This document shows, piece by piece, positions 35,477 to 42,376 of a DNA stretch of 64,000 bases. This stretch comes from Halothermothrix orenii H 168. GTDB lineage: Bacteria; Bacillota; Halanaerobiia; Halanaerobiales; Halothermotrichaceae. The translations under genes and the position numbers were made by a program. The notes under the pieces are model-generated. The model ran no database searches and was not told the DNA's origin. It saw only the letters and a program-made list of their open reading frames with translations. The DNA is taken from positions 2,078,501 to 2,142,500 of the forward strand of contig NC_011899.1 in the NCBI RefSeq assembly GCF_000020485.1. Reading direction: 5' to 3'. The stretch's first letter is position 1; each line of letters opens with the position of its first letter.

Positions 35477-36679
35477 CTATGAATATCTTAACATCTCAAC
35501 TACATTTATTCTTGAAGCCTTAAGGGCTGGATACAGGGCCGATAGAGTAGTCGAAACCAGAATAATAATAAAGGGAGTAACCCCATTACTGAAGGCCAGT
35601 TTAAAATAAAGGGGTACCGGCTCACTGACATTGGGAGGGGTATAGGTAATATAGGCATTATTTAAAGCATAGCCGATACCCCAGCCCAGGGTAAGTCCAA
35701 TAATACCCCCGATAATCCCCAGTATTAACGCCTCCTGTAGAAGCAGGGTAAAAACCTGTCTTCTCCGGGTTCCGATAGCCCTGATAGTCCCGATCTCATT
35801 CATCCTCTCAAAGAAGGCCATTGACATTATCTCCAGGATACTGAAAAAGACCAGTATAAATATTATGGTAGACAGGAAGAAAAAGATAAGGTCATACATG
35901 GCTTTTACCTGATGGTACATGGTCGCCAGGTCCAGCCAGGTTTTAATATCAACCTTAAGTCCCATCTCCTCAAATTTTTCTTCAAGGCGAGTCTTAACCT
36001 CTTCAGTCTTCCCTGTGTCTTCAAGGGAAACTATTACCTTATCAACCCCATCGGTATTTAATAGATTCTGGGCAAAAGACAGGGGCATCATAATAAAGTA
36101 ATTATCAGCTTCAGCACTATAGGTAGAAAAAGATCCCGAAACTTTAAGGCTACTGGCGCTGTAAGCCCCATCAAGGGTTGTAGCCATTAGAGAAAACCAG
36201 TCATCAACTGACAGATTCAGTTTTTCCATTACCCCTTTTCCCAGAAGAACCCTGGTCCTGTCTCCAGGAAAGAGGTTAAATCCTTCTTCAATCATTACAC
36301 TTTGATTAAAGCTATTACCGGGCTCAATTCCTGTTCCAGAAACAATGGTACTACCCTTTTCGGTCCCCAAAATTCCCGAAACCTTAAGTTCACTGGTAAA
36401 GTTATTTACATCATCAACAGACTCAAGGACCCCGGTGATAGCTTTATGGTATTCACCTGTAAGTAAAAGCCTTTCCTGTCCCGTATTTCCCCAGAATCCC
36501 TCCGGTGCTATCTGGAGGTGACCATTCCTGGATATGGACATCATTTTTAGTCCGTCATAGGTTGCAGCAAAATAACCCTTTACCAGAAAAAGTACCATTA
36601 CCCCGAAGATAATAATCCCCAGAATAAGGAGGGACCTCCTTTTATTCCGTAAAATATTACGCCATGCTATTTTTATCAT
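35477..36679 (-). CDS. LolCE/MacB-type ABC transporter permease
   Basis: This is a membrane subunit of a type VII (mechanotransmission) ABC system. The 400 residues have one N-terminal helix (about 15-35), a large extracytoplasmic domain (about 40-260) and three further helices within the FtsX domain (about 270-395), including the conserved NEIGTIRAIGTRRRQVFTLLLQEALILG. It overlaps the ATPase gene by 23 bases, so the two are translationally coupled. Such systems move lipoproteins or other envelope substrates, not sugars. Only one permease gene is present, implying a homodimer. Confidence 0.88.
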   Translation of the reverse strand: MIKIAWRNILRNKRRSLLILGIIIFGVMVLFLVKGYFAATYDGLKMMSISRNGHLQIAPEGFWGNTGQERLLLTGEYHKAITGVLESVDDVNNFTSELKVSGILGTEKGSTIVSGTGIEPGNSFNQSVMIEEGFNLFPGDRTRVLLGKGVMEKLNLSVDDWFSLMATTLDGAYSASSLKVSGSFSTYSAEADNYFIMMPLSFAQNLLNTDGVDKVIVSLEDTGKTEEVKTRLEEKFEEMGLKVDIKTWLDLATMYHQVKAMYDLIFFFLSTIIFILVFFSILEIMSMAFFERMNEIGTIRAIGTRRRQVFTLLLQEALILGIIGGIIGLTLGWGIGYALNNAYITYTPPNVSEPVPLYFKLAFSNGVTPFIIILVSTTLSALYPALKASRINVVEMLRYS

Positions 36680-37355
36680 AATTATTCACCTCTAACCTGC
36701 CATCCCTGATTTTAATTAACTTCCTGGCGTATTGATTTATTGAAAGGTCATGGGTTACTATTACAAAGGAAACCTGAAAATCATGGTTTAAACGGTTCAT
36801 TAACTCTATTATTTTTCGACCGGTTCCGGTATCCAGATTACCGGTAGGCTCATCAGCCAGAACCACGTCAGGTTCAGTTACCAGGGCCCGGGCGATAGCC
36901 ACCCTCTGTTTCTGCCCCCCTGATAACTGTGAAGGCCGGCGGTCTGCCATATCGAGCAACCCCACCTGGTCGAGAATACAATCGACTCGCTTTTTTCTCT
37001 GAGATCTGTCAATTTTCTGTAATAAAAGCGGATACTCCACATTTTCCCGGGCCGTTAAAACAGGGATCAATTCAAAAGACTGGAACACCAACCCTATTTT
37101 ATTCCTTCTAATTAAGGTCCTTTTACTATCCTTTAACTCAGATAATGGCTTGCCGTCAATATAAACCTCTCCTTCGGTAGGCCGGTCAACACCGGATAAA
37201 ATATTTAATAAAGTTGTCTTCCCACTTCCCGAGGGGCCATTAATAACAATGAAATCACCTTTATTTATCTCCAGGTCTACCCCTTTGAGGGCATAGACCT
37301 TTTCTGCCTGAGTGGTATAGACCTTCTTGATACCCCGGGCCTTTAGAATGGTCAT
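36657..37355 (-). CDS. LolD/MacB-type ABC transporter ATP-binding protein
   Basis: This 232-residue ATPase drives the adjacent FtsX-type permease. It has Walker [10 protein letters not shown], the Q-loop [13 protein letters not shown], the signature [15 protein letters not shown], Walker [13 protein letters not shown] and the switch histidine in VTHD. The ADEPTGNLD form marks the LolD/MacB/FtsE group. It shares a four-base ATGA overlap with the TPR gene upstream. Confidence 0.92.
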
Positions 37356-38164
37356 TTTTCCTCCCCTTCCTGTTTTTTAATTGATTCCATAAGCCATCTG
37401 GCCCAGCCACTGCCAGGGTATATCTCAAGGGCCTTCTTTACATACCTCATGGCCGCAGAAGCCTCCCCCTTCTTTTTATGGGCAGTTGCCAGCCACATAT
37501 AGGAAATAAAATTATCAAACCTGTCATTACTCTCCAGAGCTTTTTGAAGGGTTTTAATCCCCTTATTGACATCACCACCACCGATTTCAGGGGCATTTAT
37601 GTAATAAATAGCCATGGTATTCAGGGCTCTATAATTTGTTCTATCAAGGCTCACCGCTTTCTGGGCCAGTTTTAGGGACTGGGGTCCTTTTGTCACGGCA
37701 AAAAGGGAACCCTTGTAATTCATAAGCCTCATATAGGCATCGGCCATAAGCCGGTAAGCATCACTGAAGTCAGATTTATTATCAATGGCTTTTCTGGCAA
37801 GCTGACTGGCCTTATCAAAAGATACAGCCGCCTCCCTTTGTTTACCTAAGGCTTCAGCAACCTCTCCCTGGAGGAACTTTAACTGTCCCTGCCAGTAATA
37901 TTTTTTATAGTTGTCTTCAGATGAAGATAGAATTTCTTCACAGTTATCAACGATCTTTTTTATTTCCTGATAACCCCCCTCACCATTGTAAAAAATATCC
38001 CGGGCCCTGACATATAACTTCTGACCCTTCTGTAGGGGAGACTCCTCTCCGGCCTGAACCATAGAAGAAACTACCACCAGACTTAATCCCACCATAATAA
38101 CCATTGCCATAAACTTTAATGGCCAAATATTCTTAATGTTGCTTCTATTAAATCTCTTTAACAT
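37352..38164 (-). CDS. TPR-repeat exported or membrane-anchored protein
   Basis: After a hydrophobic segment (about residues 15-37) the protein consists of helical TPR-like repeats (YWQGQLKFLQGEVAEALGKQREAAVSF, NTMAIYYINAPEIGG, MWLATAHKKKGEASAAMRYVKKALEI). It is probably held in or across the inner membrane and acts as a scaffold for the ABC/LolA-like system. I chose the ATG at 38162-38164 because AAGGAGG is 8 bases upstream of it. An ATG three codons earlier directly abuts that site. The start codons are coupled with the neighbouring genes. Confidence 0.78.
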   Translation of the reverse strand: MLKRFNRSNIKNIWPLKFMAMVIMVGLSLVVVSSMVQAGEESPLQKGQKLYVRARDIFYNGEGGYQEIKKIVDNCEEILSSSEDNYKKYYWQGQLKFLQGEVAEALGKQREAAVSFDKASQLARKAIDNKSDFSDAYRLMADAYMRLMNYKGSLFAVTKGPQSLKLAQKAVSLDRTNYRALNTMAIYYINAPEIGGGDVNKGIKTLQKALESNDRFDNFISYMWLATAHKKKGEASAAMRYVKKALEIYPGSGWARWLMESIKKQEGEEK

Positions 38165-38183
38165 TTTCCTCATCCTCCTTATT

Positions 38184-39242
38184 TTAATGAATAGAAACTT
38201 TTACAGTGGTTCCCTGTCCCGGTTGTGACTCTATATCAAAGTCACCACCAACATCGTTGACCCTGTCCTTCATTCCCGAAATCCCAAACCGGCCACTGCC
38301 TGCCTTAACTCTGCCAACATTAAACCCTTTCCCATTATCCTTTATAGCCATTGTAATTCCATTATTGCCTATACCAAGGGTTATGCTGACCTTATCGGCA
38401 TCAGCATGTTTTACAATATTATTTAGGGCCTCCTGTGCTACCCGGTATAAGGCAAGCTGGACTTCACTCTCAACCCTGTTTTCATTACCATTAAGATGTG
38501 TGGTGATTTTCAGATTATAACGGTTTCTGTACAACTCAACCAGGCTTTCCAGGGCTTCAAAAAAATCTTTCTCCCTGAGGTGGACCGGTTTTAGTTCATA
38601 GATCATAAGCCTCATTTCGGTCTGGACCTCCTGGACCATCTTCTTCAAATCCTCAACTGTCTTTCGAACCCTATCATGGTCCCCCTCATCAATTAAAACC
38701 TCCAGGGTATTAAGATTTAAGTTGATTCCAAAAAGGTTCTGGGATACAGAATCATGGAGTTCCCGGGCAATCCTGTTTCTTTCTTCAATAATGGCCAGTT
38801 TTTTATTTTCCTTTTCAAGTTCAAGTTTCTCCTGTTGTTGTTCGAGCACATAAAAAAACAAGGAGATCATAACCGAACCAATCCCTACCCCCAGACTTAT
38901 ATATAAATTGAAACTAAAAGGAACTCCAATTAAGGGAAAGAAAATAAGTCCACACAAATAAAATACCAGACTACTTGCCAGGTAGGTAATAAAACTCCGC
39001 CCCAGTACATTACTAATTACAGGTAGAGAAAAATTTGCAGCAATATAAATCACTGACTGACTGCTGATTGAAATTAAAAAACCAACAATGTACCCGAAAA
39101 TAACATAGATTATAAAGAGCAAAAATGGGTTGTCAGTTTTTGAAAAACCAGAAAATGAAAAGAAAAACATAAGTGATATCCCGATACCAATAATACCACT
39201 TTTAAAAGAATTCTTAGTTATAGCCAGAATACTTTTTCTCAT
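38184..39242 (-). CDS. Sensor histidine kinase, NarL/DesK-type (HisKA_3)
   Basis: This kinase senses through its membrane part: about four or five helices fill residues 15-135, and almost no extracytoplasmic domain is present, as in DesK/LiaS kinases that respond to membrane state. A short coiled coil leads to the dimerisation/phosphotransfer helix NRIARELHDSVSQN (phospho-His at about 163) and an ATPase domain with NNIVKHADA and DNGKGF motifs. I chose the ATG at 39240-39242 because AGGTGAT precedes it. A GTG three codons upstream overlaps the response-regulator stop. It is paired with the regulator directly upstream. Confidence 0.9.
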   Translation of the reverse strand: MRKSILAITKNSFKSGIIGIGISLMFFFSFSGFSKTDNPFLLFIIYVIFGYIVGFLISISSQSVIYIAANFSLPVISNVLGRSFITYLASSLVFYLCGLIFFPLIGVPFSFNLYISLGVGIGSVMISLFFYVLEQQQEKLELEKENKKLAIIEERNRIARELHDSVSQNLFGINLNLNTLEVLIDEGDHDRVRKTVEDLKKMVQEVQTEMRLMIYELKPVHLREKDFFEALESLVELYRNRYNLKITTHLNGNENRVESEVQLALYRVAQEALNNIVKHADADKVSITLGIGNNGITMAIKDNGKGFNVGRVKAGSGRFGISGMKDRVNDVGGDFDIESQPGQGTTVKVSIH

Positions 39243-39247
39243 TAATA

Positions 39248-39877
39248 TCACCTATCTACCAGATTATTTTCTATAGCCTTAATAACTGCCTGAGTCCGGT
39301 CTTTAACATCCAGTTTCTTTAAAATATTACTGACATGGGTTTTAACAGTAGTCTCAGATATGCACAGGGTTTTGGCTATATCACGGTTAGAATTACCCCT
39401 GACAAGGCACGCCAGGACTTCCTTCTCACGGGGTGTTAGTGGCTCTGTCTTACGTCCCTTCCGGGCTGCCCTTTTCATGATTTTTTTGGCAACACCAGGG
39501 GTTAAAACAGGTTCCCCCCGCCGGGCTGCCTTTATAGCCTCAACCAGTTTTTCGGGACGGGAATCCTTCATTACATAACTTAAGGCTCCGGCATCTATGG
39601 CCTCAATTACCTCATCCTCTTTATTAAAACTGGAAAGAATGATAACTTCAGTCCCGGGGTTTTTCTTTTTTATCTCCCTGGTAACTTCAATCCCGTTAAG
39701 CCCGGGAAGCCGCAGATCGACCACCGCCACCTCTGGATTTAATTTTGCAATTTCTTTAATGGCCTTTTCTCCATTACCTGATGTCCCAACAATTTCAATT
39801 CCCTCCCGGGTATTTAAATATGCTTTCAACCCCTGAAGGACAAATGGATGATCATCAACCAGGTATACCTGTATCAT
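39248..39877 (-). CDS. LuxR/NarL-family response regulator
   Basis: This is the DNA-binding partner of the adjacent kinase. The receiver domain (1-120) has the acidic pocket VDDHP and the phospho-Asp in VAVVDLRLPG at about residue 54. A LuxR-type helix-turn-helix (about 145-205: TPREKEVLACLVRGNSNRDIAKTLCISETTVKTH) follows. I chose the ATG at 39875-39877 (MIQVYLVDD), which is preceded by AAAGGGG. A longer in-frame version would add about 31 residues unlike the family. It heads the envelope cluster and probably controls it. Confidence 0.92.
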   Translation of the reverse strand: MIQVYLVDDHPFVLQGLKAYLNTREGIEIVGTSGNGEKAIKEIAKLNPEVAVVDLRLPGLNGIEVTREIKKKNPGTEVIILSSFNKEDEVIEAIDAGALSYVMKDSRPEKLVEAIKAARRGEPVLTPGVAKKIMKRAARKGRKTEPLTPREKEVLACLVRGNSNRDIAKTLCISETTVKTHVSNILKKLDVKDRTQAVIKAIENNLVDR

Positions 39878-40000
39878 ACAAACACCCCTTTTTGATAAAT
39901 AAACAATTACACAGTAAAAATTTATGAGATCAGCCTTTATAACAGGAAAAATTCTTTGAAAAAAAATCAATTGTAATACAGGCTGGAATAGAAAACCATA

Positions 40001-40233: not shown

Positions 40234-40821
40234 CTATGTCCTGAAGATAATACTTTCACGCTGAAATAGCCTGACTGACATATAGTTTAATAAAAACCCG
40301 AAGATAGAGGAGCTTATAACCGTCATCCAGAAGTTAATAGCCTCAGCATTTAAACTTAAGACATCCTGTAACATAAAGATTACATTTAATATTGGAATTA
40401 AATACATGGGGGTTGATATGCTAAAGGCCCCACTCATCGACATAACCCCGATAAGTATTACGGCCATATATGCCGGCATCACATAGGAGTTTCCTTCTTT
40501 GATATTTCTGGCAAAACTACCCGCCAGCATCACTATTCCACTAATTATAAAGGCCAGTAATACCAGTAAAACCAGCATCTGGATAAGCCAGCCACCTGAC
40601 ATACTGACCACCAGATCCAGTTCTGAACCTGTAGCCCTGAAGGCAAAATTATAGGCAAAAACAATCCCTACAATATTGAGGATAGCCGAAAAGGTGGAAA
40701 TTATTATCAGGGTTATTAGCTTACCAGTTACTACTTCTGACCGGGTTAACTGGGTTACCAGGAGGGTACTCAGGGTCCCCTTCTCCTTCTCTCCTGCGGT
40801 AATATTTATCCCCACGTTCAT
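40234..40821 (-). CDS. C-terminal part of a frameshifted ABC-2 type permease (NatB-like)
   Basis: This 195-residue frame holds five hydrophobic helices and the segment GEKEKGTLSTLLVTQLTRSEVVTGKL, the conserved region before the second helix of NatB/CcmB-type ABC-2 permeases. It lacks the first helix and extracytoplasmic loop, which are encoded in the next frame upstream. Reading through the A8 run at 40970-40977 with one A fewer joins both parts without a stop, giving about 401 residues, the normal size. No ribosome site precedes this frame's own ATG. Confidence 0.65.
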   Translation of the reverse strand: MNVGINITAGEKEKGTLSTLLVTQLTRSEVVTGKLITLIIISTFSAILNIVGIVFAYNFAFRATGSELDLVVSMSGGWLIQMLVLLVLLAFIISGIVMLAGSFARNIKEGNSYVMPAYMAVILIGVMSMSGAFSISTPMYLIPILNVIFMLQDVLSLNAEAINFWMTVISSSIFGFLLNYMSVRLFQRESIIFRT

Positions 40822-40957
40822 GGCCCCGACAAAAATTGAAATAATTACAAAGTAAGGAATTACTATTCCCAGAAAGTGACCACTTTGTTCCTCTTTAGAG
40901 GCCCTGTCAATAACAGTATAGCTTACAGGATTGATATAATTATCACTTATATTCAGT

Positions 40958-41440
40958 CTACTGAGCCGTTTTTTTTACAATCTGCTTTTGGTATCTCATT
41001 ACCAGTTTTTCAAATCTATCGAGACCTGCCTGTGACCGCTCCCGGGTATTATTATAAAAAACGGTGATCTGGCCTGTCTTTCCTTCATTAATATTATCCT
41101 GGAAATCATCTTCCACCCTGAGGTAAAGGGAGATTAACCCCTCCTTAAGGGCCTCTTCAGGGTCCCTGCCCAGATAAGTAGCACCCCGGATACCCTCTTC
41201 TCCTTTCAGGTAACCAACCAGGCCCGGTGCCTTCTCTCCCCCCTCTATAAATATATAGGTAATCTCTTCATAGCTTTGCTGTTGGGCCATCATCTGGAAA
41301 TAGGTAATCCCCCCTAACAGCAGTGGTAAAAAGACAAGGGGCATTATTACCATTGTAATAAAGGTCCTTCTATCCCTTACTATCCCCTTAAGTTCTTTAA
41401 ATATTAAATACCTAATTCTGGTCCAGTTCATAGTCTTCAC
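40958..41440 (-). CDS. N-terminal part of a frameshifted ABC-2 type permease (NatB-like)
   Basis: This 160-residue frame encodes the first helix (MVIMPLVFLPLLLGGITYF) and the extracytoplasmic domain of an ABC-2 exporter permease. It stops just after a run of eight A residues (QIVKKTAQ-stop). A seven-A reading would continue as VKKRLSRLNISDNYINPVSY and flow into the downstream frame. It overlaps the end of the ATPase gene by 29 bases, as usual for coupled NatA-NatB pairs. Loss of function, a sequencing error or slippage on the A8 tract are all possible. Confidence 0.65.
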   Translation of the reverse strand: MKTMNWTRIRYLIFKELKGIVRDRRTFITMVIMPLVFLPLLLGGITYFQMMAQQQSYEEITYIFIEGGEKAPGLVGYLKGEEGIRGATYLGRDPEEALKEGLISLYLRVEDDFQDNINEGKTGQITVFYNNTRERSQAGLDRFEKLVMRYQKQIVKKTAQ

Positions 41441-42170
41441 CTACCAGTTTAAAGAATATGTCTTCAAGTCTTTCTTCCCCTGTCTGCCCGGACAGATCCT
41501 TATGACTTCCGGTAGCAATTAGTTCTCCATCAAACAGTATCCCCAGACGGTCACAGATGCTTTCCGCCAGGGTCATATTATGGGTAGATACTATGATAGA
41601 TTTGCCCCTATCCCTCAGCTGTTCTATCAGGCGGGTTACAACCCGGGCAGCCATAATATCCAGACCGTTTATCGGCTCATCAAAGATTAAAATCGGGGGA
41701 TCGGGCAATAAAGCCCTAGCTATAGATACCTTTTGTTTCATCCCTGTCGAGAAATTATCAACCCGCCGGTCGGCATATTCTTCAAGACCGAGCTGTTTGA
41801 GGATTTGCGGAATCCTTTTTTCAGTTTCCGTTCCGGGCATACCATTGACCCGGGCAAAAAATTCTAAAAGCTCCCTGACCGTGAAGTAGTCATAAAGGTT
41901 CATTTCAGCTGTAAGAAAACCAAGACTTGACCTCACTTTCTGACTATCAGTAACGGTATTATATCCTTTTACCGTAACCTCTCCTTCGGTAGGCACCATC
42001 AGGGTTGATATAATCCTGAGGGTGGTGGTCTTTCCGGCTCCATTGGGACCCAGAAGTCCGAAAATTTCCCCGGATTTGACCCTGAAAGAAACATTTTTTA
42101 AAGCAGTGATAACCCTGTCCTTTTCCTTAAAAACCTTGGTTAGATTATTAACCTCAATCAGACTATCCAT
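41412..42170 (-). CDS. ABC-2 type exporter ATP-binding protein (NatA-like)
   Basis: This 252-residue ATPase energises the adjacent NatB-like permease. It has Walker A GPNGAGKTT, the Q-loop region LGFLTAEMNLYDYFT, the signature FSTGMKQKVSIARAL, Walker B LIFDEPINGLD and the switch STHNM. This set matches the NatA/CcmA group, some of which extrude sodium. I chose the ATG at 42168-42170 because GGAGGG lies 7 bases upstream. A GTG six codons earlier would overlap that site. A halophile would have use for a sodium exporter, but the substrate is not proven. Confidence 0.88.
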   Translation of the reverse strand: MDSLIEVNNLTKVFKEKDRVITALKNVSFRVKSGEIFGLLGPNGAGKTTTLRIISTLMVPTEGEVTVKGYNTVTDSQKVRSSLGFLTAEMNLYDYFTVRELLEFFARVNGMPGTETEKRIPQILKQLGLEEYADRRVDNFSTGMKQKVSIARALLPDPPILIFDEPINGLDIMAARVVTRLIEQLRDRGKSIIVSTHNMTLAESICDRLGILFDGELIATGSHKDLSGQTGEERLEDIFFKLVGEDYELDQN

Positions 42171-42376
42171 TACTTTCCCTCCTACCACTCAGATTTATAT
42201 AATAATGCCATATAAAAATATTTAAATCATTTGCCATCCCTCATTTAATTTTTACTTAACCCTGGTCTAAATAATATTGGATTAAAAAGTTAACAATAAT
42301 ATTTTTGCCATTATCAATGATATAACTTACATCTACATTTTATTTATACATCATATTATACATTCCCCTGAATAAG

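What the first reader, a model, noticed from the sequence alone, without database searches (positions are those of the whole stretch)
40234..41440. NatB-like permease split exactly at an A8 tract
Removing one A from the run at 40970-40977 restores a single frame of about 401 residues, with the bridging translation (NISDNYINPVSYTVIDRAS) filling the gap of the family. Long A runs allow RNA polymerase slippage, so the gene may be switchable or expressed at low level rather than dead. A sequencing error is the plain alternative.
Basis: seen in the sequence. Interest (0 to 1): 0.55.

Follow-up and report, generated by a model that had tools for sequence, protein, structure and literature searches.

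The report
Transporter gene with one-base frameshift
A membrane transporter gene in a heat- and salt-loving bacterium is cut in two by one extra base in a run of eight A's, most likely a sequencing slip or a young mutation and not a switch, so the finding is ordinary.

Summary
Reading seven A's gives one open frame that aligns without a gap at the tract to 30 of 31 relatives. All relatives examined are intact. The nearest one, in a Halanaerobiales MAG (58% identity), has no A run there.

The switch or slippage reading is not supported. The tract is private to this sequence. No relative is interrupted. Frame repair needs a one-base loss (or a gain of two), whereas published slippage on A runs is mostly a one-base gain. 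A8 is tolerated in coding genes of this genome; only runs of nine or more are absent. No helper structure stands out.

There is no sign of decay apart from the one base. I judge a consensus error in the Sanger/454 genome of Halothermothrix orenii slightly more likely (0.50) than a genuine young frameshift (0.41). Functional slippage or phase variation gets 0.06. A second gene (CorA-like) is split at another A run in a 17% sample of the genome, which fits either plain reading.

The parts
40958..41431 (-). 5' part of the ABC-2 permease gene as written: ATG 41431 to TAG 40958 (157 aa; 160 aa from GTG 41440)
   Evidence: ORF; PF12698 positions 2-110 (29.6 bits, under the 31.6 cut-off on its own); ABC_perm_CPBP positions 1-157
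40969..40976 (-). A8 tract (T8 on + strand) at which the frame breaks
   Evidence: relatives have no run of 7 or more A at the aligned codons (0 of 31)
40234..40974 (-). 3' part of the permease gene, open frame of 246 codons; first start codon ATG 40821, inside predicted TM2
   Evidence: PF12698 positions 142-342 (56.8 bits); ABC_perm_CPBP positions 155-400; hydropathy
41412..42188 (-). intact partner ABC ATPase gene (258 aa), overlapping the permease start
   Evidence: PF00005, E 1.4e-34; the same gene order in the MAG relative L003/L061
40174..40200 (-). terminator-like hairpin and T run about 33 bases after the permease stop
   Evidence: 11 pairs, 5 GC (3 sites found in the region against a shuffle mean of 2.7, so the scan by itself is weak)

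Best explanation
The gene is an ordinary ABC-2 permease in an ATPase-permease pair. The deposited consensus carries one A too many in an A7 coding tract (Lys-Lys codons ahead of a commonly conserved Arg-Leu). Most likely this is a base-calling or consensus error of the 2008-era Sanger plus 454 assembly, and the cell makes one normal 398-residue permease. Shown: one single-base break, otherwise intact and conserved, private to this sequence. Inferred: that the break is in the record and not in the cell.
For: The single contig of 2,578,146 bases has the length published for Halothermothrix orenii (abstract). That genome was made with 3-kb and fosmid libraries plus 454 FLX, with a stated error rate under 1 in 50,000, which allows up to about 52 errors by my arithmetic. 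There is no other lesion: the H. orenii reading matches 31 of 34 columns that are at least 90% conserved in the other rows, and 13 of 13 invariant ones. dN to the MAG relative is 0.43 (N part) and 0.29 (C part), against 0.31 for the intact partner ATPase. A start signal and a terminator-like hairpin are in place. The site aligns gap-free with A7 in 30 of 31 relatives. The GeneTack authors expect unclustered frameshifts validated by BLASTp to be sequencing errors (PMC3711429 section 29). In a 444-kb sample a second gene (CorA-like) is also split at an A run, where one more A would join it, the opposite direction from here.
Against: No reads were available. Finished genomes with Sanger backing usually resolve A8 (recalled, not tested). 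Indels in A runs are also a common real mutation, and the genome paper reports a frameshift in another gene, PTS enzyme I, away from a slippery site and takes it as a likely pseudogene (passage). dS to the only close relative is saturated, so a recent loss of function would leave no trace.
Confidence: 0.5

Rival explanations
1. Genuine young frameshift. Replication slippage lengthened A7 to A8 in the sequenced strain, giving a null or near-null permease allele that has not had time to decay. The pieces (157 aa with TM1 and the outside domain; 195 aa starting inside TM2) are probably not a working permease.
For: A runs are hot spots for one-base indels (general knowledge). H. orenii is reported to carry a frameshifted gene, PTS enzyme I. 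The ATG of the second piece lies at residue 204, inside predicted TM2 at 182-213, and my reading of the bases upstream shows no clear ribosome site. Two other genes pass the PF12698 cut-off in the genome and are uninterrupted, so a loss might be tolerated.
Against: No second lesion and no loss of conserved residues. 19 runs of A8 in sense lie within a steady frame in the sample, so A8 as such is not usually broken here.
Confidence: 0.41
2. RNA polymerase slippage or phase variation at A8 supplies some full-length permease, so the gene is switchable or expressed at low level.
For: A8 is close to the length at which slippage becomes harmful. In 305 ORFs A8 is slightly rare (31 against 37.8 expected from synonymous shuffles), T8 rarer (12 against 22.2), and A/T runs of 9 or more are absent (0 against 23.2). 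Rescue by slippage is documented at A11 in Citrobacter tssM (PMC4256274, passages).
Against: The tract is not conserved (0 of 31) and no relative is interrupted (0 of 43 places). A one-base insertion (A9) fails; only a one-base loss or a gain of two restores the frame. Insertions predominate on A/T runs, and only 3 deletions in E. coli began within uninterrupted runs (PMC5574713, passages). Insertion was at least twice as efficient as deletion on 7-11 A (PMC6260861 citing another study, passage). The same paper notes one in vitro case, E. coli RNA polymerase on A11, where deletions predominated, so the preference is not absolute. No stable flanking hairpin (z -0.97 to -0.17).
Confidence: 0.06
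3. The two pieces are made separately and work together as a two-part permease, or the ribosome shifts frame at the run.
For: Both frames are open and conserved. A AAA AAA is a -1 slippery heptamer in the first frame (sequence; motif recalled).
Against: A -1 ribosomal shift reads into a stop after NGSVD (same frame as A9); a +1 or -2 shift would be needed. The second piece has no start before residue 204. No relative is split.
Confidence: 0.03

Closest known systems
ABC-2 permease family PF12698 (ABC2_membrane_3), with NCBIfam NF041647 (ABC_perm_CPBP) as the nearest named model
   Same: A7 reading scores 99.3 bits over PF12698 positions 2-342 (cut-off 31.6); 319.8 bits to positions 1-400 of NF041647; ATPase gene directly upstream
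   Different: Frame broken by one base; lacks the last 236 positions of NF041647 and is below its cut-off of 435
Citrobacter rodentium tssM1 (slippage rescue at a poly-A tract)
   Same: A gene interrupted just after an A run
   Different: A11 with proven insertion slippage of about 20% (PMC4256274, passages); here A8, and a deletion is needed
Thermus thermophilus dnaX (A9 slippage)
   Same: Thermophile, A run in the sense strand of a gene
   Different: A9 in a continuous frame with a working shorter product (PMC1088944 and PMC5009743, passages); here the shorter product lacks most of the membrane part
Singleton frameshifts of the GeneTack survey
   Same: One private frame break with a full-length homologue across it
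   Different: Halothermothrix is not named in that paper's main text (0 occurrences)

Membership tests
ABC-2 type permease, PF12698 | Profile match above the curated cut-off over the whole domain | tested here: met
   A7 reading 99.3 bits against 31.6; as written only the C part passes (56.8) and the N part does not (29.6)
ABC-2 type permease, PF12698 | TM1, a large outside domain, then a block of further TM helices; cognate ATPase gene adjacent (layout recalled) | tested here: met
   Hydropathy peaks at 21-49, then 182-213 and further peaks up to 362; ATPase PF00005 at 41412-42188
NF041647 ABC permease/CPBP protease | Whole-protein score at or above 435 bits, C-terminal CPBP part | tested here: not met
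   319.8 bits, positions 1-400 of 636 only
NatB (sodium-export permease) | Specific relatedness to NatB and sodium export | not tested
   No NatB sequence was compared; the NCBIfam scan returned no model of that name
Programmed transcriptional slippage gene | Slippery tract and interrupted frame conserved in relatives | tested here: not met
   0 of 31 relatives with the tract; 0 of 43 places interrupted
Programmed transcriptional slippage gene | The usual slippage product (one base inserted) restores the frame | tested here: not met
   A9 stops at 162 residues; A7 and A10 are open
Programmed transcriptional slippage gene | mRNA of mixed tract length and full-length product | not testable with these tools
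   No RNA reads or protein data
Phase-variable gene by slipped-strand mispairing | Tract length differs between cells or strains | not testable with these tools
   No other genome of the genus among the 38 of the order searched; no reads
Decayed pseudogene | Further lesions or loss of conserved residues | tested here: not met
   One lesion only; 31 of 34 conserved columns kept

The most novel reading that the evidence does not exclude
H. orenii RNA polymerase, at the growth temperature of this thermophile, slips on A8 often enough, in both directions, that A7 and A10 messages make a small, growth-dependent dose of full-length permease, so A8 is a low-expression setting that mutates back and forth.
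Probability: 0.05. Interest if true: 0.45.

Novelty: new member of a known kind. Interest (0 to 1): 0.1.

Why it matters
It matters mainly for annotation: the gene should be read as one ABC-2 permease with a doubtful base, not as two proteins or a switch. The run-length result gives a rule of use for this genome: A8 is common in intact genes and runs of nine or more are avoided, so a single A8 is weak evidence for slippage.

Tried and rejected
Ribosomal -1 frameshifting at A AAA AAA: rejected, because the product ends after NGSVD. Stimulating RNA hairpin beside the tract: none clearly better than shuffles. Conserved slippery site: not conserved. A general excess of broken frames at A8: of 75 A/T runs of exactly eight scored in the sample (3 more skipped), 30 had a confident frame on both sides; 23 kept the frame and 7 changed it. 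By ORF layout and Pfam, 6 of the 7 are gene junctions or stretches without a clear gene, and only the permease is one domain cut in two (Pfam was run on 2 of the 6). dN/dS as a test of recent loss: useless, because dS is saturated. Solved relatives by sequence: none at E 0.1. First scan of genome contigs with the A7 protein: no relative; the second, with the MAG protein, found only that MAG. A paper search for H. orenii transcriptome data gave nothing useful (terms too broad).

Full report
What is there. The finding lies on the minus strand of a single contig of 2,578,146 bases, the length published for Halothermothrix orenii (abstract seen in the listing). As written, the first frame ends at 40958. 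The next frame is open from 40974 to 40234, but its first start codon is ATG 40821. Only A7 and A10 join the frames; A6, A9 and A11 do not.

What the gene is. The joined protein is an ABC-2 permease: PF12698 at 99.3 bits over positions 2-342, while the two pieces score 29.6 and 56.8. The nearest NCBIfam model is NF041647 at 319.8 bits, below its cut-off of 435 and only over positions 1-400 of 636. An intact ATPase gene lies directly upstream and overlaps the start. A Shine-Dalgarno-like AGGTG precedes ATG 41431 (my reading). A terminator-like hairpin follows the stop (the scan alone is weak: 3 found, shuffle mean 2.7). NatB itself was not compared.

Relatives. In the order, 2 of 38 genomes match: this one and one MAG. 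The MAG copy is 401 aa, intact, 58% identical. It was later named as Halanaerobiales MAG.272, contig JAKSCG010000036.1, and has the same ATPase-permease order. Its codons at the site are GAG CAA CGG against AAA AAA CGG here. In a wider sample 41 of 398 genomes of the phylum match at 1e-15, this one included. All 43 places outside this genome have no stop inside. In the first, looser search (12 of 101 genomes at 1e-3) one weak hit, L013 (E 6.3e-4, 22% identity, residues 126-266), has one stop inside; at that score I do not count it as a relative. I aligned the 31 relatives whose loci were given and whose matches were strong; the weak hits L008-L013 and L015 and the 14 places listed without a locus were not aligned. 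At the tract 30 of 31 align without a gap, and L041 has a gap there. None has seven or more A's at the aligned codons. L022 has an A8 about five codons further on in an intact frame of 403 codons. That row shows that A8 can sit in an uninterrupted member of the family.

Selection. Leaving each sequence out in turn (L041 dropped), the H. orenii reading keeps 31 of 34 columns that are at least 90% conserved in the others, and 13 of 13 invariant ones. At the 80% level it keeps 36 of 50, against a mean fraction of 0.89 in the other rows; the MAG copy does no better (34 of 51), so I read this as their shared divergence and not decay. dN to the MAG is 0.43 and 0.29 for the two parts and 0.31 for the ATPase; dS is saturated. 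The gene was under normal constraint until recently, but a recent loss cannot be seen.

Runs in this genome. There are 436 runs of exactly eight A on the two strands. In a sample of 444,000 bases (window plus 19 stretches; 2,500 N), 305 ORFs of at least 150 codons were compared with 200 synonymous shuffles: A8 31 against 37.8, T8 12 against 22.2, A or T of nine or more 0 against 23.2. The choice of long ORFs biases against broken genes. The step at nine agrees with the length given for a large share of genomes in PMC1088944 (abstract passages; section 6). Of 30 A/T8 runs with a confident frame on both sides, 23 keep the frame, 19 of them with A in the sense strand. Seven change, and six of those are junctions or stretches without a clear gene. 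A separate search of the sample for genes cut in two gave five candidates, of which the permease was one. Pfam was run on two of the other four. One is a plain S2/EF-Ts junction. The other is a CorA-like gene truly cut in two, with an A6 run in the overlap, where A7 would join it. The remaining two candidates, with short second frames, were not tested.

Mechanism. Slippage on A/T runs mostly adds one base (PMC5574713 and PMC6260861, passages), which gives A9 here and a stop. E. coli RNA polymerase needs at least seven T and more than that of A (PMC6260861 abstract). No hairpin stands out. The second piece would start inside predicted TM2. Together these make a functional switch unlikely. Between an error in the record and a young mutation the data do not decide. 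I lean to the record because of the mixed Sanger/454 assembly with a stated bound of 1 error in 50,000, the expectation of the GeneTack authors for such singletons (section 29), and the second A-run split with the opposite sign. The same facts fit two young mutations almost as well.

Verdict. Observation confirmed; interpretation as a switch not supported; an ordinary broken or misread transporter gene.

Noticed in passing
L051:12930-13909 (G000:C1 near 1.213 Mb): A CorA-like magnesium transporter gene is split in two frames with an A6 run in the overlap; Pfam CorA positions 3-117 and 138-292 lie in different frames.
   Followed up: partly
L042:5831-5837 and L053:7129-7135: Two near-identical overlapping ORF pairs (105 and 305 codons) meet at A7 followed by G, which looks like an IS3-type orfA/orfB with a programmed -1 frameshift (label recalled, not searched).
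   Followed up: no
444-kb sample of G000, window included: No A or T run of nine or more in 305 ORFs, against 23.2 expected from synonymous shuffles.
   Followed up: yes
G000:C1:383558-385500: Two adjacent, uninterrupted PF12698 permease genes elsewhere in the same genome.
   Followed up: no
window 35477-39970: Downstream on the same strand: a response regulator, a histidine kinase-like ORF, a TPR-like ORF, an ABC ATPase and an FtsX/MacB-type permease in a row; Pfam was run only on the last, the other labels are by eye.
   Followed up: no
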